From Aminivibrio pyruvatiphilus (GTDB lineage: Bacteria; Synergistota; Synergistia; Synergistales; Aminobacteriaceae): a DNA stretch of 64,000 nt. Position numbers and translations under genes: made by a program. The notes under the pieces are model-generated. The model was not told the DNA's origin. It saw nothing but the letters and a program-made list of their open reading frames with translations, and made no database searches. Numbering within the stretch: the first letter of the stretch is position 1; every line of letters begins with the position of its first letter. Location of the stretch: assembly GCF_004366815.1 (NCBI RefSeq), contig NZ_SORI01000004.1, positions 124,001 through 188,000 on the forward strand, in the 5' to 3' direction. Below are positions 1-17,000 of this stretch, piece by piece.

Positions 1-144
1 GGCCTGACGAGGGACTCGGGAAAAAGAGTATGCGCTCGATGCATTCCCATACTCATCATTAAGAAAAGGTACCATGGCCTGATATGCTTGATTATCGAGG
101 CGGGTCGTCGCAGCATTATCAGCATAAATCAAAGCAGCACACCC

Positions 145-1614
145 TCATTCATCATACTGAATATCCGGTATGTCTCGTTTACCGGAAACATCATATTCTT
201 TGGGATCCACGATGCAAAGCTGCGTTCGGATTATCTGCCGCATAGACTTCGCAGGTTCCAGGCAGTATTTCACGAACTCTTCTTTCGAAATATCGCTTTT
301 CTTTCCCACGTGTGGGAAGAGCAATTTTAGAAAAGCCGTACAAAGCCTTTTAATGGCCGTTAAATCCCTCTTGTCTGCCTTTCTTGGTACCGAAATGCAC
401 TGATCTACGACTGCCGAATACACAAGTTCATTTCGTAATGCGTGCAATACCTCGGCAAAATATTCCGTGTTTAGTGCCCAGCCATGAGCGATAATATCCT
501 GATTAAGTCTTGGGATTTTCCAGCCGGGAATAAAACCGTGAAATCGATCAAGAGTTGCTGATTCTTGAAAAATGGGATTGATTTCTGCCACCATGTTTTT
601 GTTTACGTCAAATCGTTCCGCATCGATATTTCCTAACACGATAACGCCTGCATTTGCTACCACTTGAGCATCAAAACCCTTTATTTCTCCGAACTCCATA
701 TAATGTTTAAGGGCAGCCTGTATTTGACTGGGCTGATCGAACTTGATCGACTGGCTTTCATCAAACCCGACATAATCAAATCGAGACAAAAGGCCGCTCA
801 TTTTTTTTTGATTGTCATATACCAGGGCCGCTCTGGATACCGTACCGCCTGAAACCAGCCAGCCGCGCTTGCTGATCTTTTCGTATACGTAACTTTTCCC
901 AGTACCCTTAGGAGCTAACTCGATCAAATTAATACGGTTTTCTACAAAAGGAAGCAAACGCTGTAGGAAAAAAAGTTTCTTGGACTCGCTCGGGGCTCCT
1001 GTAACATCGTCAACATAACCTTTTGGATTGTAATCCACTGCGGATAAAAGAACATCAATCCATTCCTGAATTGAAAACTCTTTGCGAGCTTTCCGATAAT
1101 AATCCAAATCAACAGTATACGGGCAAAAGGGCTTATAATTGACAAGTCGTATGCATCCCTTGGGTGGCTTCTTCGAATAATCCAAGTTCCACATGAAATC
1201 GAGCACACCCCAGTTTTCATTTTCACGCAACAAAACATCTTGCCACTCCTTGACGACGTCGCTCTCAACGACGCCGCTCGCACCAGTTCGAGACCCGCCG
1301 AAATCAGGCAGTTCAAAAACAGTCTTTCCGTCCTTTATATCCACCATCACCCGTATGCGCGCTAGAAAACGAACCTTTTCTCCATTTACCATTGCATATT
1401 TGAATTGTTCGAAATCCTCACGACCAGGGATATATTTTTTTATATACCGGAGAACGCTATCGAAATCGATAACTCCGGATTCATCAGAAAACTTCATAAC
1501 AAGCCAGTCTCTCATATACGAAGGAAGGCTTAAATTCGAAAAGAATTCCGTTTTTTTGGGATCTTTTAGCACGATCATTTCAGAGAAGATACTTTTTATC
1601 TTATCTTCCAGCAA
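145..1614 (-). CDS. brxL: BrxL-like AAA+ ATPase of a BREX type 4 system (short form)
   Basis: 489 aa. The middle of the protein carries the BrxL signature: a Walker A loop APKGTGKS at residues 234-241, directly followed by the conserved segment with GWLVSGGTVSRAAL (251-264), and a Walker B-like YVGFDESQ at 281-288. BrxL proteins are AAA+ ring ATPases with a Lon-like region that bind DNA and are needed for BREX defence. Type 1 BrxL proteins are usually nearer 680 aa; this one stops about 200 residues after the ATPase core, so the C-terminal Lon-protease-like domain appears absent or reduced. It is the last visible gene of the operon, 27 bp after the zinc-ribbon ORF. The start is TTG at 1614, with GAGGTG 8 nt upstream. 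Identity is confident; the short length could be typical of type 4 or a truncation. Confidence 0.88.
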   Translation of the reverse strand: MLEDKIKSIFSEMIVLKDPKKTEFFSNLSLPSYMRDWLVMKFSDESGVIDFDSVLRYIKKYIPGREDFEQFKYAMVNGEKVRFLARIRVMVDIKDGKTVFELPDFGGSRTGASGVVESDVVKEWQDVLLRENENWGVLDFMWNLDYSKKPPKGCIRLVNYKPFCPYTVDLDYYRKARKEFSIQEWIDVLLSAVDYNPKGYVDDVTGAPSESKKLFFLQRLLPFVENRINLIELAPKGTGKSYVYEKISKRGWLVSGGTVSRAALVYDNQKKMSGLLSRFDYVGFDESQSIKFDQPSQIQAALKHYMEFGEIKGFDAQVVANAGVIVLGNIDAERFDVNKNMVAEINPIFQESATLDRFHGFIPGWKIPRLNQDIIAHGWALNTEYFAEVLHALRNELVYSAVVDQCISVPRKADKRDLTAIKRLCTAFLKLLFPHVGKKSDISKEEFVKYCLEPAKSMRQIIRTQLCIVDPKEYDVSGKRDIPDIQYDE

Positions 1615-1641
1615 GAGAGATGCACCTCGATTTCGACAATA

Positions 1642-1848
1642 TCATAAAAACAAAGAACAACCCTGCTCTTTGAATTCTTGTATCTTTATCTTCAAATCCC
1701 CTTCCGGACACCCGATATATTCAGCCAGGCAAGAAACGCAAAACATATCTCCTGGCAAATCCCCGACAAGCTTGCAAGACAATGCAACTTCGTCTTTGCC
1801 CAATTTTTTTTCGCATTCAGAGCACTTACGTTTTATTTTTGAAGACAT
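1642..1848 (-). CDS. Small zinc-ribbon protein inside the BREX operon
   Basis: 68 aa. The N-terminus has a CSEC pair (residues 9-12) and further cysteines at CKLVG, CVSC and GCPEG, the pattern of a small zinc-ribbon or treble-clef fold. It lies 3 bp after the pglZ stop and 27 bp before brxL, in the same orientation, so it is almost certainly co-transcribed and translationally coupled. I do not know a named BREX component of this size; it may be an adaptor for BrxL or PglZ, or a nucleic-acid-binding accessory. Function is inferred only from position and cysteines. Confidence 0.72.
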   Translation of the reverse strand: MSSKIKRKCSECEKKLGKDEVALSCKLVGDLPGDMFCVSCLAEYIGCPEGDLKIKIQEFKEQGCSLFL

Positions 1849-1851
1849 AAA

Positions 1852-4227
1852 TTACTCCCCTAACACATCATCCTCAGCGATTCCTCTTGTTCCCACTTCA
1901 AAACTACAGTTTTCTTCAAGCATTTTCCCGTCTGCTTCAAAACGTAAAAGATGCTTTCCTTGCTTCATTTCCGAGAAATGAATTTGCCACTCTCGTCCGC
2001 TTTCGACAGGACTGCAGTCAGCGCGCTTTTCTCCGGAAAAGGCAGATAGAACAGAAATCTTCTTTGAAAACTTTACCCGCAAAGAAACTGAATCTTTTTC
2101 ACGATAAACAAACGTTGCCAAAAGAGTTGGCTTAGGGGCAAGGGGGACTTTCCTCCTGAGGACAACGACAGGTACGAGTATTTCTTCTGGGGTAGCGCCG
2201 CCATGAACCTCGCCAACACTTTCATGGTCATTGTCACTTTTCCCCGCAGCATTGCCGGACTGTGTAAAGTGCTCATGATTCTTGAACACAATGAAATTCT
2301 TTCCGTCCCGCTCAATGTGGGACATTTCTGGAAGGATTTCTTTCGAGAGCGGAGCCTCTGAGGATTCGCAGTAGCGTCCATATCCTTTAACAGCCATATC
2401 TGCGTGTGGTGTGAAGCCGGGAAGCTTATGAAAAGCAAGTGCCGCTAACCGACTTGTTCCGTGATCTGCACTAATCAGCACATAATCATGTTCCCTAAGA
2501 CTATTAAGGGCAATATCTGCCACTTTTTCTATCTGATCCAGCTGATGGGCTACACAGGAAAAATAATTATTATCGTCGGGGACGCCAGAATGCGCCAGCT
2601 TATCTAAGGCATCCAGCTTCTTAAAAGGTGCGTCAATTTCTGTCCATTGCTGATTATAGGATGTTTCCGTCGGCGCACGGGCACAAACAGGTCTTGCTTC
2701 AACAGAAAAGTCATTGCCTTTATTTCTTAGGCATGAAAGTAATAACGACAACCATTCGACACCCATGGCATCAATCCAGAGAAAAAAGGAATCAAATTTC
2801 TCATATTTCTTCAGTACTGAGTAACGTTTCTCAAAACACTCCAAATCAATGGTCCTAACCATTTCGGATGCTTCCAGAGGCAGCACATTCATTAGTTTGT
2901 GTTTCCTGTACCAATGAAGATACGTCGATAACTCAGACGACAGACATTTATCGGAGGCGGTCATATAGTCCCAGAATAATGGGTAGCGTTCACGAAGAGG
3001 TGATGCAACCGCCTCGAAGTCTATTCCCTTTTTCAAGTATTTGTTGATCGTTTGTATCGCATACGTTTTTTCAGCATGTGTTTTGTAGGAGAGCAAGGAT
3101 AGTCGTGTTTCCAGTGAGGATACCTTTTCTAATTGAGAAAAAAAGTATTCGTCCTTTTCTTCAATTTTTAAAGCAGAAACGGCTTTTGCCCTCTCTTCGA
3201 TCCATTCGCTCTTCTCGATGCAGTCGAAAATGGAATACAATATTGAATCAAGGATGCCCTCTGGACTTTTTGCACGTTTTACCGCATATCCGCAGTAGTT
3301 TTCGGACGGATTGAACCTATACCAAAGCCAAATCAGCCAGCGTTTATAGGGTGACAGAATTTCCCATCGTGAAAGAAGTGAGATCGGCTCAAAAACAAGC
3401 ACATTCAAGCTTTTTTTTATGATTTCGGCCAAAGATTTTCCATAATGAAGATCTTGCGACAAGGAAGTCCATTCTTCGGCCGTTCCCCATTCACGTCTCA
3501 AAGTGCCGCCATCATCCAGGGAGGCAGTGATATAGTCAAAAACATCAGAAATGATCTTTATATTAATTAAAGATGATGATATTTGCTCCGTATTCCTCCA
3601 GAGATTTGTAACGAGCCTGCAGCTTTTTCTCTGGCCGTTTATCATGCCTGACCATTTATAAAACCATGTCTGAACACCCTGCATGATATCGGTTCCACAA
3701 AGAGCCTCTCCAAATTCCTGGGAATAAACATTCAAGGAAAAAGGCTCGAGGGAATGATCAGAATGAACTCGGCTTGAGGGAAGGCTCAGCTCCCAAATGC
3801 AATCCCTCTGGCGTTCATCATCGTAAGGAATTACTCTATCCCATAAATCCCGGCAACATGGCAAAGGGATGATAACTCTCGTCCTGGATGAGGCAGCCTG
3901 CTGGCTATACCAGAGGGACGGGATATTCGCTTTTTGTGGTTGGACCTCACGTGCAATGGTCAGACGTAAATATTCTCCGAGAGAAAGAAGCAAAATATGT
4001 TTTTCCCGATGCTCTTCTATCTTTTTGAAAATTTTACTGAAATTTGGGAGCACATCCGGCGCAGAGCAGAAATCGGCCAACTCCAGCGTCACGTCGCAAG
4101 CATTTTCAAGAGCGGTCTCCAACTCTTTGTATTGTGACCAATCATCGACAAAAATAAGCCGTACCGGAAATCGGGATTCTACCTTTTTTTCATCCGCGAG
4201 CCGCTGAAGAATCTCTTGCAGCGTCAC
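1852..4227 (-). CDS. pglZ: PglZ-family BREX protein (alkaline phosphatase-like domain)
   Basis: 791 aa. PglZ is the shared hallmark of all BREX types and has an alkaline-phosphatase-superfamily domain. Here that domain begins near residue 478 with FFLWIDAMG (metal-ligand Asp at 486), continues with LISADHGTSR (Asp588-His589), and ends with the conserved GEVHGGATPEEILVPVVVL segment. The ~470 N-terminal residues are poorly conserved, as usual. The start is GTG at 4227 with a GGAGGG ribosome site 7 nt upstream; an ATG one base away is in another frame. It follows brxC by 20 bp and precedes the zinc-ribbon gene by 3 bp. Its biochemical role in BREX (phosphodiesterase or phosphatase acting in DNA marking or signalling) is not settled. 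Confidence 0.93.
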   Translation of the reverse strand: MTLQEILQRLADEKKVESRFPVRLIFVDDWSQYKELETALENACDVTLELADFCSAPDVLPNFSKIFKKIEEHREKHILLLSLGEYLRLTIAREVQPQKANIPSLWYSQQAASSRTRVIIPLPCCRDLWDRVIPYDDERQRDCIWELSLPSSRVHSDHSLEPFSLNVYSQEFGEALCGTDIMQGVQTWFYKWSGMINGQRKSCRLVTNLWRNTEQISSSLINIKIISDVFDYITASLDDGGTLRREWGTAEEWTSLSQDLHYGKSLAEIIKKSLNVLVFEPISLLSRWEILSPYKRWLIWLWYRFNPSENYCGYAVKRAKSPEGILDSILYSIFDCIEKSEWIEERAKAVSALKIEEKDEYFFSQLEKVSSLETRLSLLSYKTHAEKTYAIQTINKYLKKGIDFEAVASPLRERYPLFWDYMTASDKCLSSELSTYLHWYRKHKLMNVLPLEASEMVRTIDLECFEKRYSVLKKYEKFDSFFLWIDAMGVEWLSLLLSCLRNKGNDFSVEARPVCARAPTETSYNQQWTEIDAPFKKLDALDKLAHSGVPDDNNYFSCVAHQLDQIEKVADIALNSLREHDYVLISADHGTSRLAALAFHKLPGFTPHADMAVKGYGRYCESSEAPLSKEILPEMSHIERDGKNFIVFKNHEHFTQSGNAAGKSDNDHESVGEVHGGATPEEILVPVVVLRRKVPLAPKPTLLATFVYREKDSVSLRVKFSKKISVLSAFSGEKRADCSPVESGREWQIHFSEMKQGKHLLRFEADGKMLEENCSFEVGTRGIAEDDVLGE

Positions 4228-4247
4228 ATGCGCTCCCTCCCTGCTTG

Positions 4248-7200
4248 CTATTCTACAAAGTAATAGCCGAGTTCTGGATGTTCATCCAAAAGAGCCGATA
4301 ATTTATTTTTAAGCGTGTTCTCGCTCATTGAAGCAATCTTTTCCTGGACATCCTGCAAATACTGCATTTTCAGCTCCTTTTTTCTAAATTCACTCAAAAT
4401 ATTCGTGATCTCGGGAGCTTTTAGAGCCCATCCGTATGCATCGACTCCCAATTGATTTCGAATATCTGCAAGAAGACGATCCCGGTTTATTGAGAAAAGG
4501 TCTTTAAATTCTGAACCTACCTTGGCAAAAAAACGATTTTGAACATACTCCGGATTCTGCAGATAGGAGATGGCCGTGTTCTTGAAAAATGAAAGCGTTT
4601 TTTTCAGCACTCCCCCGTCGACAGGTTGTATTTCCTGAATCGATTTCAAAATCCTGAAATGCTCAAGATCATTTTCAGGAACAACCCACTGAATCGGCGT
4701 GGCATATTTTTTGCACCACTCCGAAATCGATTCAGTTCCGGAAATCTCTTTCCAGATTGACAGTAATTCCTCTTTATTGCGTGATATTTCTATCTTGCCC
4801 AACTGTCTGTCGATCGTATCGGAAAAATGAGCTTCGGGGCTATCGTAGGGAACAGGCTTCAAGCTGGAAATAATCTCCTCCAGCTCTTTCTCCTGACATG
4901 AGATTCCCCTCTTCCTTAAGTATTCCTCCAGCATTAATTTGGAAGAAGTAACAAATTGCCATGCAGCTTTCGAATGAGTTTTCAAGACCTGAAGAATACC
5001 AGGTCTTTGATCTGATGGCGGAAGGAAAATGCCCTTGCTGATTTTGGACAATAAACGCAAAGCTTCTGTCCAATCTTTCTCGAATGTCTCGATCACGATA
5101 CCAGGGACTATCATTGAACGGAAATAGTTCGATAGCTGCTCACCAATCAGGGAAATACTTCTGCAAGAAGTACCCATCGCCGAATTCACTACGAAAACCA
5201 GTTCATATTCCCAACATAGTTCATCGAGTTTTGTTTTTACATCTTCCTCAGACCAGGTATACACGGCACTTTGAAGCACCTGTTTGATGCGTGAGATAAG
5301 ATCGCCCGAAGAAACGTCCATCTGCTCCATCAAAACGCGCAGCGGAGGTGAAGCTTCGGCTACAAAAAACCTGAAAGCCTCAGAAAGTTTCTTTTTGTCA
5401 GCGAAAGCCTCAGTCATATTCTTGCGCAGAGGTCCCATTCCATTAAACAAAGCGACGGTATTTTCCATTATTTCGGTAGAACTTTCAGCCCCGTTTATGA
5501 ACGCTCCTATGTTTTCGACTATCTCGCAGGCCTTTTTCTTTGCTTCGACACTACCGAAGCTCTCCTCTCGGAGGTATTTCATCACCCAGAAGGGAAGTCC
5601 TGTTGTCACGAGTTTTTCGCGCATGTACTTTCGAGCCTGCTCCTCGCTGACCACATCAGCGTCCGTAAGGGCAAAAATACACTGAATATACTCTTTAAAA
5701 TTCTGCCATGCCTTCGAACCACATGAAAGCGTATTGCCGATCATCTGCCCTTTGCAAATCTTCAAAATCATCGAAGCCATGGTCTGTTCGGTCAAAATAT
5801 GGGTATTATTTGTCTCATCAATCCAGTAAAACTGTCCATTCACATAGAACCTCAACACCGCCCCAAGAATGCCTGCACAGGCCAAAGAGTTAAAATAACC
5901 GAAAGGCTCTTTCTGGAGGTCACTCCACATCTGGTCTAGATGAACCCGCGTACCTTTGGAAAGCGTATCGTTAATATAACGGGACAGCTGGGAAACAGTT
6001 CGAGCTACGACATTGCTCCCTTCGTATCTCACAAGCTCATCTATAGATGCTGCTTCATAGACCTTAGCCGTTTGTAAGGGTTGGAGAATATTGTTTAATT
6101 GTGAACTGGTAGCTTTGCCGGAAATTCCGCTCAAGGCCGCACTTTCAGTAGCTCCCTTAAAAGCGGTTGAGGTACTAACGATACGCTCAGGTGCGGCCGA
6201 AAAAATGCGGAATATGACACCATCTTTCAGCTGTCGTGAAAGATCATCTTTTCCCCATGCAGAGAAGACCCTATCTTTATAAAAAGCGGTAATTTTATTG
6301 CTTACAGCAGACTGTACCCACGCGAGCAGCATTTGCTCCGCTTCATTTTCATATTTGTCCGCGCTCCCCTTTTTCCCCTCTTCGGCAGCCAGCTCTTTAT
6401 GCGTTATTTTTTCATGCCACCGGTTCAGAAAATCATCGGTCAGCGGCTCTTTTAAAACGCATGTAACAAGATGATTGGTTTCATCTTCTGCAGCCATGCT
6501 TTTTAGCTTGTCGTGAAGAGTTTGATATTCGCTGGATTCTTTCAGAACAATCACAAGAACTCCGACAGCATATGGTGATTTTTTTAACTCATCCAGCAAA
6601 TCCGCATGACGACGATTGATAGAGTTCGTCTCCGAAGAGCAGGCGCAGACGGTAACTCTTCTGCTTGTTGCGTCATCGTCAGCCCAAATACGTCCTTCTA
6701 GGGCATCTGCAATTTCACCCTTCTTTTTGAAAAGTTCATACCGTGTATATTTCCTTTGAATCTGCTCCAATCGGATGGAGAAAACATCGGCATTTCCACT
6801 GTATGGTAGTTCCAGGCGCACGTCTCCGCTGGAGCTTTTGTCGAGACGAAGCAACCCGTTCTCCTGAAAGAGTTCGAGATATTTGTCCAAATCTTCTTTC
6901 GTAAGCTGACCGCTAAAACAGAGATACAGGCATTTTTGGGTAGGTGAAACCCTGCCGTTGTTCAACCTGCTGTAAAGATGCGTTGTCCTGGTGGTGGACA
7001 TGACTGCTATCAAGAGCATAATCGCTTTAAAAACATGTTGGCCTGTCTCATTTCCCGCATAATCTCTCTTCTCTATATAGTGCTGATAACACTTTCGGGC
7101 ATCCGAACTGAGGTCTTTCACGTCACTATCCCGTGTAAAGAAATAGTCCCAGAGGAAATCGGGAGTCAACCATCTCCAATCATCCGGGCCATATTTATTG

Positions 7201-8444
7201 ATAAAGTGGATGAACCCCACGTTTTCGTCCGCCTCGCTGAGATCTTTCATGAATCGAAAAAGTGTTCTCTGTGAAGCCCCGAAATTCTGCGCCACTATAG
7301 CAAGCATTGAAAGCGTCATTGGATGCAACGGGCATAACTGGGAAAGCCGGTCTTGTTTCCTTTCCATCTCCAAATTATCGAATTCATGAACATCGTTTTT
7401 TAAGCTTTGCATCAGTTTTGCCTTGATTTCTTTCCACTGTTCCTCCATTCCGGGACGAATCCAGATGGAATTGCCTATAAGATCGTAAGCTGCACTTTCA
7501 CTGATATGAAACTCAAGTTCGTGATAACGGTGCATTATACGCTGATACGTTTGCTCTCCCATATTCTCTACCCAGCCCGGATCACGGTGCACTATCAGAC
7601 ACATATAAAACGGCTGTTGTTTGCAGTACTCGGATAAACGCTGCAAGACGTTGTCATCTCCGCAGTCTCGAAGAAAACCTGTAAACTCGTCCCAAATGAA
7701 AACAATTCCGGTATCCGTTAGTTTGTTCCCGGCGATTATGTCCTTTAGCCATTCCTGGAACTGATCCACGCTGTTGAAGAGCCCCCAGCCCTTCTCCTTG
7801 ATGATCATAGCCACTCTGTCGGTTGCTTTTAAATCGTTCCCCATGATCTCTGATTTAAGCTCTTCGAGAGAGCCGAATTCCTCAAAGAGACCGAATTCCT
7901 GGTCATGGAAAACATGCTCCCAGTTGATAGACCGGTCATTCAACTTGTCCTTCACTGAACGGACCAGGGAACTGCTCCCGTAATAAACCTTCTCCCCAAA
8001 CTTCTGGCGCAGTTTTTCGCAAATAGCGGCCTCCATCTCCATCATAAGATGAACGCCGTTTTTTATGCCCGTGCATCCACTCTTCCAGACAACAAGAAAC
8101 TCTCCTCTTTCTCGTATGGAGACAAACTTGTTACGGTAAGGCAAAAGAATTTCTTTTGAAAGAAAGGGCTTAATATCTTCTATAGGGTCTTCAAAGAGGT
8201 GTTTGAGCACTATAGCCGCATAGCTTTTTCCGGTACCGTAGGCACCGTGAATCCAGAACGATCGCCGGGCATCCTTCGTCTCTTCTTTAATCGACTGGCA
8301 AATCTTGTCCAAAGCGATCTTCATATCCTCATGGACAATATATTCCTGCCAAAGATTTGGATTGCGTTCCTCGGCATCCAGATCGACAACTGATTCATAG
8401 TAAGGACTCAGTTCAATGTACGAACTGTACTTCGGCATCTCCAT
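4248..8444 (-). CDS. brxC: BrxC-family large P-loop ATPase of BREX
   Basis: 1398 aa. BrxC proteins are very large AAA-type ATPases (DUF499/BREX BrxC family) that scaffold the BREX complex. A Walker A loop GAYGTGKS is at residues 67-74, preceded by FWIH, and a Walker B segment IVFIWDEFTGFL is near residue 250. The remaining ~1100 residues contain no motif I can name and are mostly helical in character. The ATG at 8444 has AGAGGTG just upstream. It starts 6 bp after brxP ends and stops 20 bp before pglZ, giving the brxP-brxC-pglZ-brxL order that defines BREX type 4. Homologues in other BREX types are about 1200 aa. Confidence 0.92.
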   Translation of the reverse strand: MEMPKYSSYIELSPYYESVVDLDAEERNPNLWQEYIVHEDMKIALDKICQSIKEETKDARRSFWIHGAYGTGKSYAAIVLKHLFEDPIEDIKPFLSKEILLPYRNKFVSIRERGEFLVVWKSGCTGIKNGVHLMMEMEAAICEKLRQKFGEKVYYGSSSLVRSVKDKLNDRSINWEHVFHDQEFGLFEEFGSLEELKSEIMGNDLKATDRVAMIIKEKGWGLFNSVDQFQEWLKDIIAGNKLTDTGIVFIWDEFTGFLRDCGDDNVLQRLSEYCKQQPFYMCLIVHRDPGWVENMGEQTYQRIMHRYHELEFHISESAAYDLIGNSIWIRPGMEEQWKEIKAKLMQSLKNDVHEFDNLEMERKQDRLSQLCPLHPMTLSMLAIVAQNFGASQRTLFRFMKDLSEADENVGFIHFINKYGPDDWRWLTPDFLWDYFFTRDSDVKDLSSDARKCYQHYIEKRDYAGNETGQHVFKAIMLLIAVMSTTRTTHLYSRLNNGRVSPTQKCLYLCFSGQLTKEDLDKYLELFQENGLLRLDKSSSGDVRLELPYSGNADVFSIRLEQIQRKYTRYELFKKKGEIADALEGRIWADDDATSRRVTVCACSSETNSINRRHADLLDELKKSPYAVGVLVIVLKESSEYQTLHDKLKSMAAEDETNHLVTCVLKEPLTDDFLNRWHEKITHKELAAEEGKKGSADKYENEAEQMLLAWVQSAVSNKITAFYKDRVFSAWGKDDLSRQLKDGVIFRIFSAAPERIVSTSTAFKGATESAALSGISGKATSSQLNNILQPLQTAKVYEAASIDELVRYEGSNVVARTVSQLSRYINDTLSKGTRVHLDQMWSDLQKEPFGYFNSLACAGILGAVLRFYVNGQFYWIDETNNTHILTEQTMASMILKICKGQMIGNTLSCGSKAWQNFKEYIQCIFALTDADVVSEEQARKYMREKLVTTGLPFWVMKYLREESFGSVEAKKKACEIVENIGAFINGAESSTEIMENTVALFNGMGPLRKNMTEAFADKKKLSEAFRFFVAEASPPLRVLMEQMDVSSGDLISRIKQVLQSAVYTWSEEDVKTKLDELCWEYELVFVVNSAMGTSCRSISLIGEQLSNYFRSMIVPGIVIETFEKDWTEALRLLSKISKGIFLPPSDQRPGILQVLKTHSKAAWQFVTSSKLMLEEYLRKRGISCQEKELEEIISSLKPVPYDSPEAHFSDTIDRQLGKIEISRNKEELLSIWKEISGTESISEWCKKYATPIQWVVPENDLEHFRILKSIQEIQPVDGGVLKKTLSFFKNTAISYLQNPEYVQNRFFAKVGSEFKDLFSINRDRLLADIRNQLGVDAYGWALKAPEITNILSEFRKKELKMQYLQDVQEKIASMSENTLKNKLSALLDEHPELGYYFVE

Positions 8445-8450
8445 ACACCT

Positions 8451-10796
8451 CTATTCGATAGCGAGATCTATGATATCCAGCGATGATACCTCCGTGGACA
8501 GCCTTACGTTGTCAAGGTCTGCCACAAATGAAACCCGGATAAACTTCTCGAAATGAAGAGCCAATTCCTGCAAGATTTCTTTGAAAGCAGCGGGGTTTAT
8601 AGCGAATATGGAAACGGGATCCATTCCTGCGCTTTCATCGCTTGACCTGGCCTGCTCGAGCTGGGCCAGGGAAAAAGCATGCCGACCGGTCTTTTCGGCC
8701 CAAAGATACAGGGCGTACAGAACAGCAAGAGCATCCGGCGTTTCCCACCCCTGCTTAATGAACTTGTAACTGTTTCCGATAGCAATGGGAATACCCTGCT
8801 TGAGAACGCTGCCTACCGGGCTGTGGCGCAGGGTTTCCAGCAGAGAGGTGATTGCGTTGTCCCGCGTCGAATGTGAATAGTCGTCCCCGAGCATAGATAC
8901 CAAGTCACCTTTTTCATAGGTCTCTCCTGCAGGGACCTTGAGCATGTACCACCGAATAATCGTTGAAGCATAGGCCAGATTCGACCAAATCACGGCCCAC
9001 GTCAGCGGGTTGTAAGCTCCTAAAGTTTTGAGTCTCTCGAAAAGAGGCGTAGGGTTTCCGGATTTCTCTCCCTTATTTGCTGGAGTAATCAATCCGCTTT
9101 CTTTTAGCCAGACTTTTAGTGCGTCGTATTGTCGATTCCCAAGGTGTCCCGTCGAAAAACAGTCGCTTCCAAGTTCGAAGTAGTGCTCCAGCCAGATTCT
9201 TCGAAACCCAAATGTCTGATATCGGTTCATTCCTTTCAAATTCATCCCGTTGCCCCCCAATGTCGTCGAAAGGGATTTCGCCACAAGACACCCTTTCCCT
9301 CCGGTGAATACAATGCAATTCCCGCAGTGTACGCACCGATCCTCCCGAACGAAGATACGGCCGCTATCTAAAATGGTGAATGCCCCTGTAGGGCACTGCA
9401 CGACGCAAGCCTTGCAGCCGATGCAGTATGCAACCTTGTTCGCAACACCTCTTAAATAGCTTAGAATGTAACGATCCATTTGCTTGTACGGAGCATATTT
9501 CACGGTAAACGCATCGGAATTATCTACCGTGAAAGAAAATTCCCTTCGCTGAATTAACTGAACACCTCTGTTACCAGAGACCTCAATTATTGGACCTAAA
9601 AGAGGAGCAACATCAAACCAATTTTGTTTTGGAGAGGTAGTGAATTGAAATATCAAATTGTCATTTATAATATTTTCTAATACCCTATTGCCCCCATTGG
9701 GTAAATTACGTCCACCCATACGAGTTCGCCAACCATTAGATTCAATATATAATTGCCTTCTATTGGCATTAACACCTTGATTCTCAGCATATCGCTCTAC
9801 TTTCCCCAATAGCGTTTTAACTTCATTGTGAAATAAGGAATTACTAAGGCTATCACGCCATTTTGAGGACAATGGGCAAACAGTACACCCTACTCGATTA
9901 AATCCCAAATAATAAAGATGATTTAATAAGATATTGTTTTTCAATAAATATACAAAGGCTTCGGCCGAATTCCACTTTAAAATTGGACTGCAATTCACTT
10001 GGCTAATATTCTTCGCCCCAACGCTGACATCACCGTATTGTGACCGCGCCGCACTTTCTTCCGCACGCACACCGTCAAAGACAACGGCCTTCACATTGTA
10101 GTCTCCTGTTATCTCACGAAGTTTCAGAAGCGTGGGCACCGACTTATGAACTGCACAACACCAACGCATGCGCCTTCCAGGAGGCCCGAACTCGTCCCAT
10201 GTCCTTTCGGGCGTCATATGTGATGCCGCCTCGTAAAACCTTAGATTGCTCCAATGTTTCTTTGCCCTCTCAATTGCATCTATGGTACCTTGTAGTTCCA
10301 TTCCGGTATTACTGAAAATAACCTGAAAACAGTCGGGAGGGAGAGCCTTGTCCACCAAATCCAGAACTAAAAGTGAATCCTTCCCCCCGCTGAAAGCCAC
10401 CACAAAGGAATATCCTTGACCGCTGAACTCTTCATATTGTCTGCGTATAAAAAAAACGGCTTTTTGTTCCAGGCCCTTAATGAGCCCCTCGTTTACACTC
10501 CATAGAAGGTCCAAATCTATCGCCTTCAAGCAAAGATCCTTTTTAAAAACTTCAATTCGCGGCTTGGTGTAGAACCCCCCGCCTTTTGCCTCAGCGACAC
10601 ATTCTCCATTCAGGATATATCGCCTGATTCCTTCCGCCCACAAAAGAGGGGCGGTTGTATCAGGATAGTTCCAGTATTCTTGCATACCGAAGAAATCAAG
10701 CTCTTCTTTGAAAACTGGCCGAATTTCTTTCTCAAGTTTACTCGTTACAGATAATTTAAAAATTCCATACTGACTGGTCCATTCATAGCCGTACAT
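8451..10796 (-). CDS. brxP: BrxP: PAPS-reductase-like PP-loop protein fused to a ferredoxin domain (BREX type 4)
   Basis: 781 aa from ATG 10796, which has AGGGG 7 nt upstream; an in-frame upstream start inside the HNH gene lacks a good site. A PP-loop SGGKDS lies at residues 136-141, as in PAPS reductases, DndC and SspD. Cysteines follow at WCC (212-214) and GCTVCP (303-308). A ferredoxin-type domain follows with CIGCKACVVQC (458-468) and CVHCGNC (488-494) plus a later Cys503, suggesting two 4Fe-4S clusters. BrxP defines BREX type 4. By analogy with DndC, ATP activation of a DNA-linked group and sulfur transfer is plausible, but no cysteine desulfurase is visible here. DNA coding residues ~259-418 (9541-10020) is visibly more AT-rich than the rest of the gene, hinting at an exchanged module. 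Confidence 0.9.
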   Translation of the reverse strand: MYGYEWTSQYGIFKLSVTSKLEKEIRPVFKEELDFFGMQEYWNYPDTTAPLLWAEGIRRYILNGECVAEAKGGGFYTKPRIEVFKKDLCLKAIDLDLLWSVNEGLIKGLEQKAVFFIRRQYEEFSGQGYSFVVAFSGGKDSLLVLDLVDKALPPDCFQVIFSNTGMELQGTIDAIERAKKHWSNLRFYEAASHMTPERTWDEFGPPGRRMRWCCAVHKSVPTLLKLREITGDYNVKAVVFDGVRAEESAARSQYGDVSVGAKNISQVNCSPILKWNSAEAFVYLLKNNILLNHLYYLGFNRVGCTVCPLSSKWRDSLSNSLFHNEVKTLLGKVERYAENQGVNANRRQLYIESNGWRTRMGGRNLPNGGNRVLENIINDNLIFQFTTSPKQNWFDVAPLLGPIIEVSGNRGVQLIQRREFSFTVDNSDAFTVKYAPYKQMDRYILSYLRGVANKVAYCIGCKACVVQCPTGAFTILDSGRIFVREDRCVHCGNCIVFTGGKGCLVAKSLSTTLGGNGMNLKGMNRYQTFGFRRIWLEHYFELGSDCFSTGHLGNRQYDALKVWLKESGLITPANKGEKSGNPTPLFERLKTLGAYNPLTWAVIWSNLAYASTIIRWYMLKVPAGETYEKGDLVSMLGDDYSHSTRDNAITSLLETLRHSPVGSVLKQGIPIAIGNSYKFIKQGWETPDALAVLYALYLWAEKTGRHAFSLAQLEQARSSDESAGMDPVSIFAINPAAFKEILQELALHFEKFIRVSFVADLDNVRLSTEVSSLDIIDLAIE

Positions 10797-10806
10797 AAAA
10801 CAACCC

Positions 10807-11490
10807 CTATCCAAGCGTTTTAAGAATCTGTTCGCACTGAGAGCGGGAACGCCACGGACGATACTGATGCAACACCTGATGGCAGTTCGGACAAACCGTT
10901 ATAAAATCTTTTCCCGAGAAACGCATTTCAGGTCTCATGTCTTGCGGTAGGACGAGAAGATGAGGATCAAGGAACCGAGCAGTTTCCCTGAGGTGAAAAG
11001 CTGTTTGTGGATTCAAACCACATATCGAACAGCTATTGCAAGTTTTGGAAAAGCGAAAACCATGACGATTCTCTAAGAAGCTATGTAAATTGAATAGAAT
11101 AACCCCCTCAGGAAACTCAACGGTCGAGGGGAAATAAGAAAAACCTATAGATTTAACGAAATCAGAATTTCTTTTAATAGATTGAGCAATTTCTGAGATT
11201 AATATTTTATTCTTGCCAATCTCATTATATACCGTATAGAATATTTCGCCTACATGAATTGGTTTCTTCTTTTTCTGCAACCCCCATTCAAAAGTAAGAA
11301 GTTGTCTCCGTACACCTGAAGGATTCCTAAAGGTCTCATCCCGCTCAGAAAGCGGAATGAGAGGAAGACTATTCAGTAGTTTGCTCAACTCGATAATCGC
11401 TTCATTCTCCACGGAAAAGTTCTTTGTATCCATGGAAAAAAGGACGTCCAATCCCAAAATGACTTCGTCTCGCGTCCAAGGAGGGTTCAT
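10807..11490 (-). CDS. HNH endonuclease-like protein at the head of the BREX type 4 operon
   Basis: 227 aa. The N-terminal half resembles the common leader of McrA-like HNH restriction proteins: PPWTRDEVILGLDVLF at the start and FRNPSGVRRQL near residue 55. The C-terminal half has a zinc-binding HNH scaffold, CNSCSICG then VCPNCHQVLH, two CxxC pairs about 55 residues apart. The usual HHxxP catalytic strand is not obvious; only an isolated His in AFHLRE precedes the second CxxC, so activity is uncertain. The stop lies 10 bp before the brxP start and its own start is 3 bp after the upstream gene, so it is translated in the same operon. Middle codons (11,060-11,330) are unusually AT-rich. It may cut foreign DNA by its modification state, but that is inference. 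Confidence 0.75.
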   Translation of the reverse strand: MNPPWTRDEVILGLDVLFSMDTKNFSVENEAIIELSKLLNSLPLIPLSERDETFRNPSGVRRQLLTFEWGLQKKKKPIHVGEIFYTVYNEIGKNKILISEIAQSIKRNSDFVKSIGFSYFPSTVEFPEGVILFNLHSFLENRHGFRFSKTCNSCSICGLNPQTAFHLRETARFLDPHLLVLPQDMRPEMRFSGKDFITVCPNCHQVLHQYRPWRSRSQCEQILKTLG

Positions 11491-11493
11491 TGT

Positions 11494-13677
11494 TTATACT
11501 CCTGCGTTCAGGAGGACTGTTCTCATGTCCTTGGACCAGGCAAATCGGAAATCGTCCAGTGCCTTGTGCATGCTGCCGACAAGTTCGTTTCCCTCCAACA
11601 CCCCGTTTTGCTTCAAGAATTGGCGCAAATCTTCAGCACTGACACGTTTGCGGGGCTCCCGTCGTTCTTGAAGCAAAGCTGAAACAACATCGGCAAAGGT
11701 CGCTATTTCGGATTGCAAAGGAACGAGTGCGGCGTGCAGAGTATCTGTTCTCTGTCCAGAAAGGGCGGGTATAGAACGATATCCGATATCCTGATGGAAT
11801 CGGAGAACCTCTTGGAGCAAAAGCGCAGTCCATTCAAGGCGAAATGGCAGTTCAGGAAGGCTCGAGTACCATTCCTTCCTAATGTCGCGAAGAATGATAA
11901 ACTTGTTGCCATCGAAAATCCTTGAAAGGCACCCGGAAATATGCTTTATCCACTGTTCATTTATTTGTAGGAACTCGTCAAGCAAGTAATGATTTCTATC
12001 ATACTGTAAAAAAGTGCCTTCTCTCCCGATACCCATTACAGTTTGCTTAAAATTCGGTACATTGAAGCCAAGGCGCTTTAAAAACTCGTCGCACTCTTCA
12101 CCGGAAACGATATTTTTCGCCATACGAGCGAAATGGATTGCAAGGCCTTTCATTGTCTTCGGATAACTCGGTTCTTTATACCAGATATGGGTCCCATTGG
12201 AAAAGACAAAAGAATGGCCACGATATTGCTCTTTTGAAAAAAAATGCTTTGCCAGCAAGTATACAGATACTATGTCATCAAAGCCGTTATCGTTCAAGGG
12301 AATCATTAACTCCACTCGAACTGCATTGTATAAGAGACGCGCTGAAACATATCCGTCGAAACGCTCGAAAAGCCGCTCAAGAATTCGGTGCAACCCGTCT
12401 GCAATCTTGTCCGCGTCTACAATTGCAGAACGATGGACATACTTCTCTCTTCCAATCTCTACGATTAGAATTTCAGAAGCGATTAATTCCGATGCGACCG
12501 CCCGTGTGCATTGCAGATTAGAACAAATTTCTTGCAGAGAAGCCCCCTGAACACCATAGCCCTTAATAAAATCCAAAATATGTTCCGAAAGGTGATATGA
12601 TGCAGTTGTATCGTTCAAGATATCATCCCGATTCCTTGAAAGAGAAACCTCCGAATTGGATGAACATGTACGCATCCCCAACGAAAACTTTGGGCGCACG
12701 TAGATTTGCACTTCCTGGATGGGAATGCCTGTATGAAGACAAATGCTCTGCGCGCTGCGGACAACATTACGGACATCGGGATCAGCGTTCACGAAGAAAC
12801 CATCAGCAAATTCCTTTGAAAAACGGAAAGCGTTTTTGTTTCGGGAAATTAAGGGGCACTCTCCTCGAACAATAGGAGTGTCAGCAAGTTTTCCGATACG
12901 TTCCGGGCTTTTTTGGATTGCTGCACTGCATACACAAAGCAGGACATCAGACCAAGATTCGACCGGGAAAGACCTGTTGCTTACCACAGAGCGGACAGGG
13001 GCAACCTCACTCAAAATCTCTTCGGAGGCGAGATCCATCACCACAAGACCAGCATTTTTCTGTACGAACGCATCTTTTGGGGCCAAGATAAACTGCACTT
13101 CTTTTGAAGAAGGTTCGTTTGGGAAACGCTTTTTAATGCTGTTTAAAATTTCTAGGCGCTCTTTCAAAGGGTAGATATTTTTTCTATTCATGTATTGCAA
13201 GATGGAAATATTCCTTATTTGTTCCAGAGTCGTAATTCCATCTATTTTAAAAGCATCGAGAAGGGGACGGTATTTATCTTCCTGCAGCAGAGTCTCTAGA
13301 GACTGAGACACCATTTTCTCCCTGCATTCCGCTGTTGAAAGAGAATCTGCTGAAAGAGTTCCCCTTTTAGCACTATCATACCTCGATTCAAGTTCGCTTC
13401 CTTCCTCCGAGCAAAACTTTTCATACAGCCGTAAAGCATCAATAATCGCAAACTGCTCTAAAGTGGGCATTGACCTGAATTCGGGGGATGAGATCACTTC
13501 TCTAACTTTATTTTTCATCAAAGAAGGCGACAGATGGATAAAATCAAATTCAATCTTCATAAAACGAGGAATTGAATAGAGATGCTTCATCACTTGGTTA
13601 GGATCGGACAGTTTTTTACTGAAAAGCCATTTTTTAAAGCGTGATTCATTAGTATTTGCTGAAACGCCAAGTGACAT
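11494..13677 (-). CDS. Unrecognised 727-aa protein, first gene of the BREX type 4 operon
   Basis: I do not recognise a family. From ATG 13677 (AGGTGG 5 nt upstream; a GTG 9 nt earlier is less well placed) it reads 727 aa, with no signal peptide, membrane segment or Walker motif. The middle (roughly residues 390-430) has a helix-turn-helix-like segment, GASLQEICSNLQCTR followed by ELIAS and a strand-turn ending KYVHRS, which reads like a winged-helix module. The N-terminal ~200 residues are strongly helical. It lies 3 bp upstream of the HNH gene, so the two are probably made together and may work as a pair. Candidate roles are DNA recognition, a specificity or regulatory subunit, or a nuclease partner; the sequence alone does not choose between them. 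Confidence 0.7.
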   Translation of the reverse strand: MSLGVSANTNESRFKKWLFSKKLSDPNQVMKHLYSIPRFMKIEFDFIHLSPSLMKNKVREVISSPEFRSMPTLEQFAIIDALRLYEKFCSEEGSELESRYDSAKRGTLSADSLSTAECREKMVSQSLETLLQEDKYRPLLDAFKIDGITTLEQIRNISILQYMNRKNIYPLKERLEILNSIKKRFPNEPSSKEVQFILAPKDAFVQKNAGLVVMDLASEEILSEVAPVRSVVSNRSFPVESWSDVLLCVCSAAIQKSPERIGKLADTPIVRGECPLISRNKNAFRFSKEFADGFFVNADPDVRNVVRSAQSICLHTGIPIQEVQIYVRPKFSLGMRTCSSNSEVSLSRNRDDILNDTTASYHLSEHILDFIKGYGVQGASLQEICSNLQCTRAVASELIASEILIVEIGREKYVHRSAIVDADKIADGLHRILERLFERFDGYVSARLLYNAVRVELMIPLNDNGFDDIVSVYLLAKHFFSKEQYRGHSFVFSNGTHIWYKEPSYPKTMKGLAIHFARMAKNIVSGEECDEFLKRLGFNVPNFKQTVMGIGREGTFLQYDRNHYLLDEFLQINEQWIKHISGCLSRIFDGNKFIILRDIRKEWYSSLPELPFRLEWTALLLQEVLRFHQDIGYRSIPALSGQRTDTLHAALVPLQSEIATFADVVSALLQERREPRKRVSAEDLRQFLKQNGVLEGNELVGSMHKALDDFRFAWSKDMRTVLLNAGV

Positions 13678-14004
13678 AAGATCCACCTCATTATTCAGAG
13701 AAATACAAATTAGATCAAAGACGTGAACATACCACCATCACATAAAAGATGTTTCAAATTAGTACACTCGGACCCTTTGAATAAGAAAAAGAAGAATCGA
13801 GAGCATCTCTTTTATAGTATTGAAAACTCGACCTGCATATTTTTAATAAACCTAAAAATCTCCATTTATCAGCCTGCATAGATAGATTCCATAAATATTT
13901 TCATCTTTCTATACTGCTCTAACCCTATTTGTTGAAGATAATTTACTGCTGTTTTTCAGTAGAAGCAACCTATCCTTATTTTTTACAGCTTTTCTCTGGG
14001 ATTA
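13678..14004. other. AT-rich gap between rpoC and the BREX operon
   Basis: About 330 bp with no convincing ORF on either strand and only a weak hairpin (TACTG...CAGTA near 13,950). No clear intrinsic terminator follows the rpoC stop, so some read-through from rpoC into the defence operon is possible. It contains the putative BREX promoter. Confidence 0.6.
13729..13757 (-). promoter_or_regulatory. Possible promoter for the BREX operon
   Basis: On the minus strand TTGAAA (13752-13757) is followed after 17 nt by TGGTAT (13729-13734), about 52 nt before the first ATG of the operon. The -35 fits well and the -10 only moderately. A TACTATAAAA element further upstream (around 13,812-13,821) is an alternative -10. 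Confidence 0.35.
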
Positions 14005-17000
14005 CTAGCTCTGTTTTATAAAAAACGAGCGGTTTCCGTTTTTTCGACCCATACTCAAATATCCTATGATTTCCAGATCAGCAGCATACACTTCTGATTT
14101 TTGAGAGAAGAAAAATGGTGTTTCACCTTGCCCCTTCCTTGATCGATCTCCTTGAGTCCGCACATTTCCATGGAGCATAAGCCAGCCAAGCAACATGACT
14201 ACAAAAAACAGGATTATGAGAGTGACACGTTTCAGAATTTTCACATTCGCTTTCTTTCTTGTTTCATCGTCCCGAGCAGTTTCGTCTCCGTTTCCTTCAG
14301 AGAAAACATGGTCTGGAGGCGTGGAAACCAACTGGACCCTTTCATCAGAATCTTCTCCACCAGGTCTGAATGCCGGGCGATCATGCTGGGCATGCTCTTG
14401 AAAGCTGTTGCTGTCATCCTTATTTTCATCCATTTTCTCTTGCAATCCAGTCTCTGGTGCCGGCCTTTTCGATTCTGCGGCATAATAAAAATGAGCTTCT
14501 TCATCGGCAATATTATGCTTTTCTCCTAAAGTCACTTCTATTTCCTTATGTTGACTGCCATAAGGCATGGGAACTATCTCATCGTATTTCTCCTCATCAG
14601 AAAAATGTTGATAAGGGTTAACATCGCTTCCAGAAACTGGATAGCCTGCTTTTTTGTTTTCAAAACTTGCTTTGGGCATATCTTGATAATATTCCTCGGT
14701 AAAAGAAATTGGGGAGTTCTCTGGATTTTTTTTCTCTTCAGGTCTTCTTAGTATTGGAGTCATCTGAATCATCTTGATGTTTTGGAAAAACTCCACTCCC
14801 GCTCCGGCGGCTTTTTCGGCCAGCGCCCTGGCCTGGCCGACCCTGATGGCCCGGAATCTTTCAACTCCCGTTCCGGCGGGGATGAGGTGACCGATGATCA
14901 CGTTCTCCTTCAGGCCCTCGAGGGGATCGATTTCCCCCTTGACCGCCGCCCCGGCCAGGACCTGGGCCGTCTGCTGGAAGGACGCCGCGCTGAGGAAGCT
15001 GTCCGTGGCGAGGGCCGCCTTGGTGATGCCGTGAACAAAGGGCTTCACCTTCGGCCCCTCCCGGAGTTTCCGGACGAAGGTCACCCGCTGGATGATCTTC
15101 TTTTCGTCCTTCCGGGGAGCGCCAATGGGACGGACCACCACTTCCAGGAGATCCGGACAGTCGGCGAGGGCGTCGATCACGGCCTGGTTCACTTCGGTGC
15201 CGGCTTCAGCCAGGACATGTCCTTTCCTGTCGGTCACTGATTCGAGCAATACCTTGCCGTAGATCTTGGCCGACAGGAGATCCCTGAGAAAACGGTCTCT
15301 CGAGAAAATGGAGCCGTCTATCTCTATGGCGGAAACGGAACCGTCGAGAATTCCTTTAATGATGGAAGCATCCACCAGCTGCGGAATGTCCGCAATGGCA
15401 TCCCCGTCCCGGTCGATGGCCTGGGTCAGGGGCTTGCCCCACTTGTCCTTGAGGCTCTCCTCGAGCTTGTCGGGTATGTTGACCCGCTCCACCGTATGCC
15501 ACAGGACGATGGACGGGACATTGAGCTCCCTGCACCGGGCGGCGTCCTTCGCCGTGAAGACCCTGTCGGCCTTCGCGATGAGTTCGTCGTCCACGATGAT
15601 GTTTTCAGCGAGATAAACGCCGTCGGCGAGCTTTTCAAGAATCTCGCCGTCACGGACGAGCAGGGGCGTCGGGTCGTCGGCGGTGATGATGCCGAGCTGC
15701 CCGAGGGTCAGGTGGGTCCCGGCGGAAATTTCCTTGCCGTCGGAGGAGGTGAAGGGAGTGATGAGGTCCATGCCCTCCATCTGCTTCCTGAAAGCGGCCT
15801 CGCCCACGATGAGGGTGACGGGAACGCCTTCCTCGTCGTCCACCACCACGGAGGAGATCATCATGCCGGGCCTGAGTATGGTCCGGATGGCTTCCTCGTC
15901 CAGGGGGACACCGATATACCTGGTCACCGCTTCGTTGAGCTTCTGGGAAGCCACGTCCCGGAGGATCCGGCCCGAGAAGATCCGGACCGCTTCGGTGATG
16001 TTGTCCTCGTTTTCCTTTACTATCTGGGCCATCTCGGCGTCGATGTCGTCGGTCCACACGAGGTCGCCGGCCACGAAGGAGGTGTCTCCCTCCTCGGTGA
16101 TCTTGACCCGGTTCACCGGCGCCACTTTCCGCAGGATGACCTCGATGTGCTTGTTGTTGATGGACACGCCCTGGGATCGGTAGACTTCCTGGATCTCGTC
16201 CACGAGGGCCCGCTGAACGGCCTCGATCCCCTCCACCTCGAGCATCTGCTGGGGGTCCACGTTGCCCTCGGTGATCTTGTCGCTCTTCCTGACCTCATCC
16301 CCTTCCTTGATCAGAAGGTTCTGGCTGATGGGGATGTTGTAGGTAGTCTTTTCCTCGCTCTCGCCGTTTCCGGAGGTGATGATGACCTTCCGCTTGCCTT
16401 CCATGACCCGGACTTCGGAAACCCTGCCGTCCACGCCGGCGAGGTAGGCCACTTTCTTTGGACGGCGGACTTCAAAGAGCTGCTCGATCCGGGGAAGACC
16501 CTGGGTGATGTCCTCACCGGTAAGACGGACACCGCCCGTATGGAAGGTCCGCATGGTGAGCTGGGTTCCCGGCTCGCCGATGGACTGGGCGGCAACGACG
16601 CCCACCGCCTCGCCCATGGGGACTTCCTTCCTGGTGGCCAGGTCCATGCCGTAGCACACCTGGCACACGCCGTGCCGGAGGCCGCAGGTCAGGGGGCTCC
16701 GGACCCACACGGATTCGATTCCCGCCTTTTCTATCTTTTCCGCCGTCTCGACGGAGATGCATTCACCCTTCGACGCTATCACGGTGCCGGTCGCGGGGTC
16801 GGCGATGTCGTCCAGGGCGGTGCGGCCGTAGATCCTCTCCGAAAGGGGGATCATGACCTTCCCGTCCTGCTTCAGGGGCTCGATGCAGATGCCGTGGTCC
16901 GTGCCGCAGTCATGGTCCGTGATGATGAGATCCTGGGCCACGTCCACGAGCCGCCTGGTGAGGTATCCCGACTTGGCCGTCCGGAGGGCGGTATCGGCAA

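What the first reader, a model, noticed from the sequence alone, without database searches (positions are those of the whole stretch)
145..13677. Expanded BREX type 4 operon with three accessory genes
Seen: seven genes on one strand with gaps of 3-27 bp. The brxP-brxC-pglZ-brxL order defines BREX type 4. Added are a 727-aa unknown protein and an HNH nuclease at the head and a zinc-ribbon ORF between pglZ and brxL. Type 4 is among the less studied BREX types, so this gene set may be a variant defence system with its own nuclease.
Basis: partly seen in the sequence, partly recalled or inferred. Interest (0 to 1): 0.82.

Follow-up and report, generated by a model that had tools for sequence, protein, structure and literature searches.

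The report
Sulfur-based BREX operon with DNA-reader genes
A bacterium carries a known kind of anti-phage gene cluster that probably marks its own DNA with sulfur; the two odd genes at its front look less like an extra DNA cutter and more like detachable DNA-reading parts that related clusters carry fused into one protein.

Summary
The operon is real, and its core is an ordinary type 4 (phosphorothioate, PT) BREX. brxP, brxC, pglZ and brxL match PADLOC or NCBIfam models. The window edge hides an eighth gene, a cysteine desulfurase 12 bp after brxL. That gene and the zinc-ribbon gene are already reported type-4 parts (PMC12839542), so only the two leading genes are unusual.

The 727-aa gene does co-occur with brxP: its last ~320-350 residues recur directly upstream of brxP in the two closest relatives whose upstream DNA is visible (G124, L061). 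All six loci of a second brxP clade carry a different, modular head protein in the same place.

The HNH gene is in no other BREX-4 locus examined. It has lost the water-activating histidine (HH to HL), so 'its own nuclease' is not supported. Its N-terminal domain is homologous to modules fused into the G124 and gut-contig L046 head proteins.

Best reading: a horizontally acquired PT-BREX whose head protein and detached HNH-derived module read DNA. Reader function, shared transcription and PT marks were not tested.

The parts
11494..13677 (-). 727-aa head protein (GTG alternative start at 13686). C-terminal ~320-350 residues conserved next to brxP; N-terminal half unlike the relatives
   Evidence: no match in Pfam, PADLOC, NCBIfam, PHROGs; C-region 41% identical to G124 head and 37% to L061 head, both directly upstream of brxP
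10807..11490 (-). 227-aa HNH-like protein: N-terminal reader-like domain (residues ~4-107) plus degenerate HNH domain
   Evidence: Homologues on plasmids; catalytic His replaced by Leu178; N-domain homologous to head modules of G124 and L046
10957..10959 (-). Codon 178 (CTT, Leu) where seven homologues have the second His of E-x-H-H
   Evidence: role of the residue from TagI His229, PMC6212794
8451..10796 (-). brxP: PAPS-reductase domain, ferredoxin-like Fe-S region, C-terminal DUF4007-like region (start refined from 10814)
   Evidence: PADLOC BrxP 8e-225 over 7-785; Pfam PAPS_reduct 2.9e-29 and Fer4; start by homology
4248..8444 (-). brxC: P-loop ATPase
   Evidence: PADLOC BrxC 4.5e-77, weaker SspC matches
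1852..4227 (-). pglZ, type 4
   Evidence: NCBIfam NF033445 BREX_PglZ_4 298 bits, cut-off 140; PADLOC PglZ 6.6e-47
1642..1848 (-). 68-aa zinc-ribbon protein (two CxxC pairs)
   Evidence: 50-57% identical genes at the same place in G124, L061 and L165, and after brxL in G033, G131, G092 and L046
145..1614 (-). brxL, short form
   Evidence: PADLOC BrxL 2.8e-185; NCBIfam TIGR02688 397.6 bits, cut-off 329.3
1..132 (-). 5' part of an eighth gene, cysteine desulfurase (379 aa), which continues outside the window (contig C4:122993-124132; L042:5993-7132)
   Evidence: Aminotran_5 2.7e-80; same place in L061, L165 and L046
13678..14004 (-). AT-rich upstream region (31% G+C) between the operon and the rpoC copy, likely promoter region
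   Evidence: Composition; one weak promoter-like match at 13718-13690, not above chance

Best explanation
An eight-gene, horizontally acquired type 4 BREX (phosphorothioation-based) operon in a Synergistales-like bacterium. Shown: gene content, order, families, and conservation of the head gene's C-terminal region next to brxP. Inferred from the families: the cysteine desulfurase supplies sulfur, BrxP with BrxC puts phosphorothioates into short host sites, and PglZ with BrxL stops DNA that lacks the mark. Inferred from architecture: the 727-aa head protein is a BREX-4 component that couples swappable N-terminal DNA-reading modules to a conserved C-terminal region, and the HNH-like protein is a nuclease remnant kept for its N-terminal reader module, which in relatives is fused directly into the head protein.
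For: Core families. Desulfurase and zinc ribbon in place, matching the published type-4 set (PMC12839542). Head C-region found in 2 of 188 phylum genomes by strong matches, both among the 8 genomes with full-length BrxP, and in L061, each time directly upstream of brxP. HNH N-domain profile matches the tandem modules of the G124 head: hhalign probability 95%, score 50.7 against a best control of 18.6 over 68 segments; reciprocal profile searches agree and add L046. Catalytic His lost, other HNH features kept. Island composition 44% G+C against 56-60% around it.
Against: No experimental evidence for DNA reading by the head or the HNH-like protein. No recognised DNA-binding domain in the window head protein itself; its structure model failed. 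The HNH gene itself is seen in only one BREX-4 locus. Several type-4 loci (Methanosphaera, G233) have no head gene, so it cannot be essential to all type 4. One substitution could be a sequencing error.
Confidence: 0.55

Rival explanations
1. The HNH-like protein is an active accessory nuclease of the BREX operon, a backup or auxiliary effector that cuts unmarked or foreign-marked DNA.
For: HNH nucleases are the second most common auxiliary effector class beside BREX (PMC12839542); homologues are annotated HNH endonucleases, two beside restriction-modification genes; the structural cysteines, the first His of the HH pair and the last His are kept.
Against: The His that activates water is Leu here while seven of seven homologues keep it; Pfam HNH hits the seven and not this one; no other BREX-4 locus examined has the gene.
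Confidence: 0.12
2. The head protein and the HNH-like protein are regulators of operon expression rather than readers of target DNA.
For: First position in the operon. A sigma-70-like gene is the gene upstream of brxP in G176, and a distant relative of the head C-region in G101 carries sigma-70 region 4.
Against: Length and module turnover exceed what an autoregulator usually needs (inference). The G176 sigma factor may be an ordinary neighbour. No regulator family matches the window proteins.
Confidence: 0.15
3. The HNH-like gene is a chance passenger inserted between head gene and brxP, with no role in BREX; the head protein alone is the type-4 component.
For: The gene is absent from all other BREX-4 loci examined, including the close relatives G124 and L061; its homologues live in other contexts; its active site is decayed.
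Against: Gaps of 3 and 10 bp to its neighbours and an intact frame; its N-domain is the same module type that is fused to head proteins in two other BREX-4 loci.
Confidence: 0.18

Closest known systems
BREX type 4 / brxPCZL (phosphorothioation-based)
   Same: brxP, brxC, pglZ, brxL in the defining order; cysteine desulfurase and small zinc-finger gene as reported (PMC12839542)
   Different: Adds a head gene and a degenerate HNH-like gene in front of brxP; neither is named in the main text of the published type-4 description (its supplementary tables could not be read)
Head proteins of other BREX-4 loci (G124 707 aa, L061 673 aa; second family in G163, G033, G059, G131, G092, L046)
   Same: Directly upstream of brxP; C-region 37-41% identical in G124 and L061
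   Different: N-terminal modules differ between loci; the second family's C-region is not shown to be homologous
Stand-alone HNH endonucleases on plasmids (Priestia, Shinella, Burkholderia, Rhizobium, Psychrobacter, Nocardia), with an EcoKMcrA-like HNH domain
   Same: Same two-domain layout, 25-30% identity along most of the protein; the family profile hits the EcoKMcrA HNH domain at 8e-7
   Different: Catalytic His replaced by Leu; lies inside a BREX-4 operon. The family profile does not hit the solved PT sulfur-binding domains
Ssp and Dnd phosphorothioation systems
   Same: BrxC resembles SspC, BrxP resembles SspD/DndC weakly
   Different: No SspE, DndDE or DndFGH among the window genes; PglZ and BrxL instead

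Membership tests
BREX type 4 | BrxP (PAPS-reductase family with DUF4007-like C-terminus) | tested here: met
   PADLOC BrxP 8e-225 over the whole protein; PAPS_reduct 2.9e-29
BREX type 4 | Type-4 PglZ | tested here: met
   NCBIfam BREX_PglZ_4 298 bits against a cut-off of 140
BREX type 4 | BrxC ATPase and BrxL in the order brxP-brxC-pglZ-brxL | tested here: met
   PADLOC BrxC 4.5e-77, BrxL 2.8e-185; order
[quoted passage not shown]
   published frequency 56% of taxa for the desulfurase (PMC12839542)
BREX type 4 | Phosphorothioate marks in host DNA and phage exclusion | not testable with these tools
   Needs DNA from the organism or a host carrying the operon
[quoted passage not shown]
   Leu178 in the window protein, His in seven of seven homologues; role from PMC6212794
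Active HNH (His-Me finger) endonuclease | Metal-binding His of CxxCHxxxH and structural cysteines | tested here: met
   C154, C157, C200, C203, H204, H208 invariant in the alignment of eight
Active HNH (His-Me finger) endonuclease | Match to the Pfam HNH model | tested here: not met
   PF01844 hits 7 of 8 members, not the window protein
PT-dependent SBD-HNH restriction enzyme (ScoMcrA/SprMcrA type) | Sulfur-binding domain | tested here: not met
   The family profile finds only HNH-type chains in the PDB, no solved sulfur-binding domain, at E up to 1; a sequence test, so a fold-level relation is not excluded
Ssp / Dnd | SspE or DndDE/DndFGH partners in the operon | tested here: not met
   No PADLOC match to these in the seven window genes

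The most novel reading that the evidence does not exclude
The head protein is an unrecognised component of two of the three type-4 BREX clades sampled: a specificity or reader subunit whose N-terminal modules are swapped between loci (tandem or fused in some, detached onto a former HNH nuclease here), which would set the PT motif or the self/non-self reading, much as HsdS does for type I restriction.
Probability: 0.35. Interest if true: 0.65.

Novelty: new variant of a known kind. Interest (0 to 1): 0.45.

Why it matters
How PT-based BREX systems choose their DNA sites and tell self from non-self is, as far as I could find, open. It also warns that 'HNH nuclease in a BREX operon' should not be taken as an effector without checking the active site.

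Tried and rejected
AlphaFold of the head protein with three sequences: pLDDT 35, not used for a fold search. Homology between the clade-A and clade-B head C-regions: not supported (hhalign probability under 1%). HNH N-domain as the known PT sulfur-binding domain: no sequence hit. Genome-contig scan with the head C-region used only two peptide patterns and found just the G124 record, so co-occurrence beyond this phylum rests on few loci; plasmids gave no head relative. Attempts to reach Clostridia genomes failed: 'of' takes only genome handles, no spore-formers among the sampled handles, and the BrxP genome found outside the phylum, G233, belongs to a phylum with three genomes held. Pfam PglZ (PF08665) misses this type-4 PglZ. 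Scans with single proteins against viral contigs gave little. Considered and set aside: a separate transcript for the two leading genes; the promoter and terminator scans show no excess over chance, which is not decisive. The bioRxiv/PMC paper on BREX type 4 in gut bacteria (PMC12914056) is not held.

Full report
OBSERVATION. Starting brxP at the Met shared with its homologues (10796) rather than at the ORF caller's TTG (10814) gives gaps of 3, 10, 6, 20, 3 and 27 bp. The operon runs on past the window: 12 bp after brxL begins a 379-aa cysteine desulfurase (contig C4:122993-124132). The operon is 44% G+C (desulfurase 45%), against 60% for the neighbouring rpoC and 56% for the rest of the window. 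A relaxase-like ORF and a transposase-like ORF lie beyond the desulfurase (my reading of the translations). This points to horizontal acquisition. The organism is Synergistales-like: the record that matches relative G124 is titled Synergistales bacterium, and G124 is in the same order as the window's genome.

THE CORE. PADLOC gives BrxL 2.8e-185, BrxP 8e-225, BrxC 4.5e-77 and PglZ 6.6e-47. NCBIfam's BREX-4 PglZ model scores 298 bits against a cut-off of 140. BrxP carries the PAPS-reductase domain and ferredoxin-like clusters, with the ferredoxin-region cysteines invariant in ten homologues. A 2026 survey (PMC12839542) describes type 4 as phosphorothioation-based and reports a cysteine desulfurase (56% of 457 taxa) and an often co-occurring small zinc-finger protein. 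Another paper lists brxPCZL among the three known PT-synthesising gene families (PMC11931770).

THE HEAD GENE. No library recognises the 727-aa protein. Its last ~350 residues are 41% identical to part of a 707-aa protein directly upstream of brxP in G124, and residues 403-724 are 37% identical to part of a 673-aa protein directly upstream of brxP in the viral-collection contig L061. Among 188 genomes of the phylum, strong matches occur in two, both of them BrxP genomes, while full-length BrxP occurs in eight. The only viral-contig hit is again beside brxP. A BrxP tree of 14 rows gives a clade A (window, G124, L061, L165; support 100/99), a clade B of six (100/100) and a third group of four (G176, a Methanosphaera plasmid, G233, L047; 95/95). 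All six clade-B loci have a protein of 469-1002 aa directly upstream of brxP, all from one other family. The third group has no head of either kind: Methanosphaera and G233 lack one, G176 has a sigma-70-like gene 45 bp upstream, and L047 shows little upstream DNA. The conserved C-terminal regions of clades A and B are not shown to be homologous. Their N-terminal modules are shared, however: L061 matches G163 and G131 (1e-16, 4e-12), and the duplicated G124 module matches L046 (1e-8). L061 also shows a HARE-HTH-like stretch (1.4e-4, just under the curated cut-off) and an integrase SAM-like stretch (below cut-off); L046 has an integrase SAM-like domain above cut-off. Heads therefore look like mosaics of DNA-binding modules. 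That DNA is what they bind is an inference.

THE HNH-LIKE GENE. Relatives on plasmids (about 25-30% identity) are stand-alone HNH endonucleases. Two Psychrobacter copies lie beside cytosine-methyltransferase restriction systems; none of the annotated stretches shows BREX genes, and three records carry no annotation. In the alignment of eight, the window protein has D-P-H-L where the others have E-x-H-H; codon 178 is CTT at 10959-10957. In TagI the corresponding His229 activates the attacking water and is needed for activity (PMC6212794; the correspondence of residues is my alignment). Pfam HNH hits the seven relatives and not the window protein. The structural cysteines and the last His are kept. 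The likely reading is a nuclease remnant; a sequencing error or an unusual active site is not excluded. In the phylum the gene family has no other strong match.

THE LINK. A profile of the N-terminal domain of this HNH family matches the tandem N-terminal modules of the G124 head protein (hhalign probability 95%, score 50.7, against a best of 18.6 over 68 control segments of head proteins). It also matches the N-terminus of the L046 head (hmmsearch 7e-8). In reverse, a profile of the head modules finds the window HNH protein (2e-6). These searches were over a handful of sequences, so the E-values are only relative. One module type thus occurs fused to the head in two loci from two clades, and detached next to the head in the window. 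This is the main argument that the HNH-like gene works with the head protein, and it favours a reader over an effector nuclease.

MECHANISM. Shown: gene content, neighbourhood conservation, module homology, loss of the catalytic residue. From family knowledge: sulfur transfer by the desulfurase, PT insertion by BrxP/BrxC, effector action of PglZ/BrxL. Inferred: reading of DNA sites or marks by the head protein and the HNH-derived module. Not tested: PT in this organism, phage exclusion, a shared transcript.

LIMITS. The head family was sampled in few loci outside this phylum. The published survey's supplementary tables could not be opened and may already list such a gene. The head structure model failed. 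The notion that the island was acquired horizontally rests on composition and neighbours, not on a tree.

Noticed in passing
window 14005-19776 (-): A second, solitary full-length rpoC (RNA polymerase beta'): 94% identical in protein to the resident rpoC on contig C9 (in the usual rpoB-rpoC setting) and 96-97% to that of a congener. DNA homology spans almost exactly the ORF, dN/dS is about 0.1, and the last residues are replaced in frame by a ~260-aa tail with a probable transmembrane helix that has no match in 188 phylum genomes. Assembly error was not excluded.
   Followed up: partly
L061:1-21489 and L165:1-19934 (IMG/VR contigs): Type-4 BREX loci of the same clade lie on contigs called viral: in L061 directly behind tail, holin, endolysin and tail-fibre genes (PHROGs), suggesting carriage on or beside a prophage.
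   Followed up: partly
L036:10587-11981 (G176): A complete sigma-70-like gene (regions 1.1 to 4) sits 45 bp upstream of brxP in the same direction; whether it is the housekeeping sigma factor or an extra copy was not checked. L036 also holds a second, separate DUF4007-like fragment between brxP and brxC.
   Followed up: no
window 1672-1651 (-): A terminator-like hairpin with a T-run (9 pairs, 3 G-C) at the end of the zinc-ribbon gene, before brxL, in the longest gap of the operon; possible attenuation, but such hits are not above chance in this scan.
   Followed up: no
L055:5741-8485 (G101): A 914-aa protein with sigma-70 region 4 and a distant match to the head C-region (2e-6), with no BREX core gene recognised on that contig: the C-region may belong to a wider class of HTH-rich proteins.
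   Followed up: partly
L042:1-5605 (contig C4, downstream of the operon, outside the window): A relaxase-like ORF, a small HNH-like ORF, a transposase-like ORF and two short repetitive secreted-looking ORFs follow the desulfurase, consistent with a mobile island boundary.
   Followed up: no
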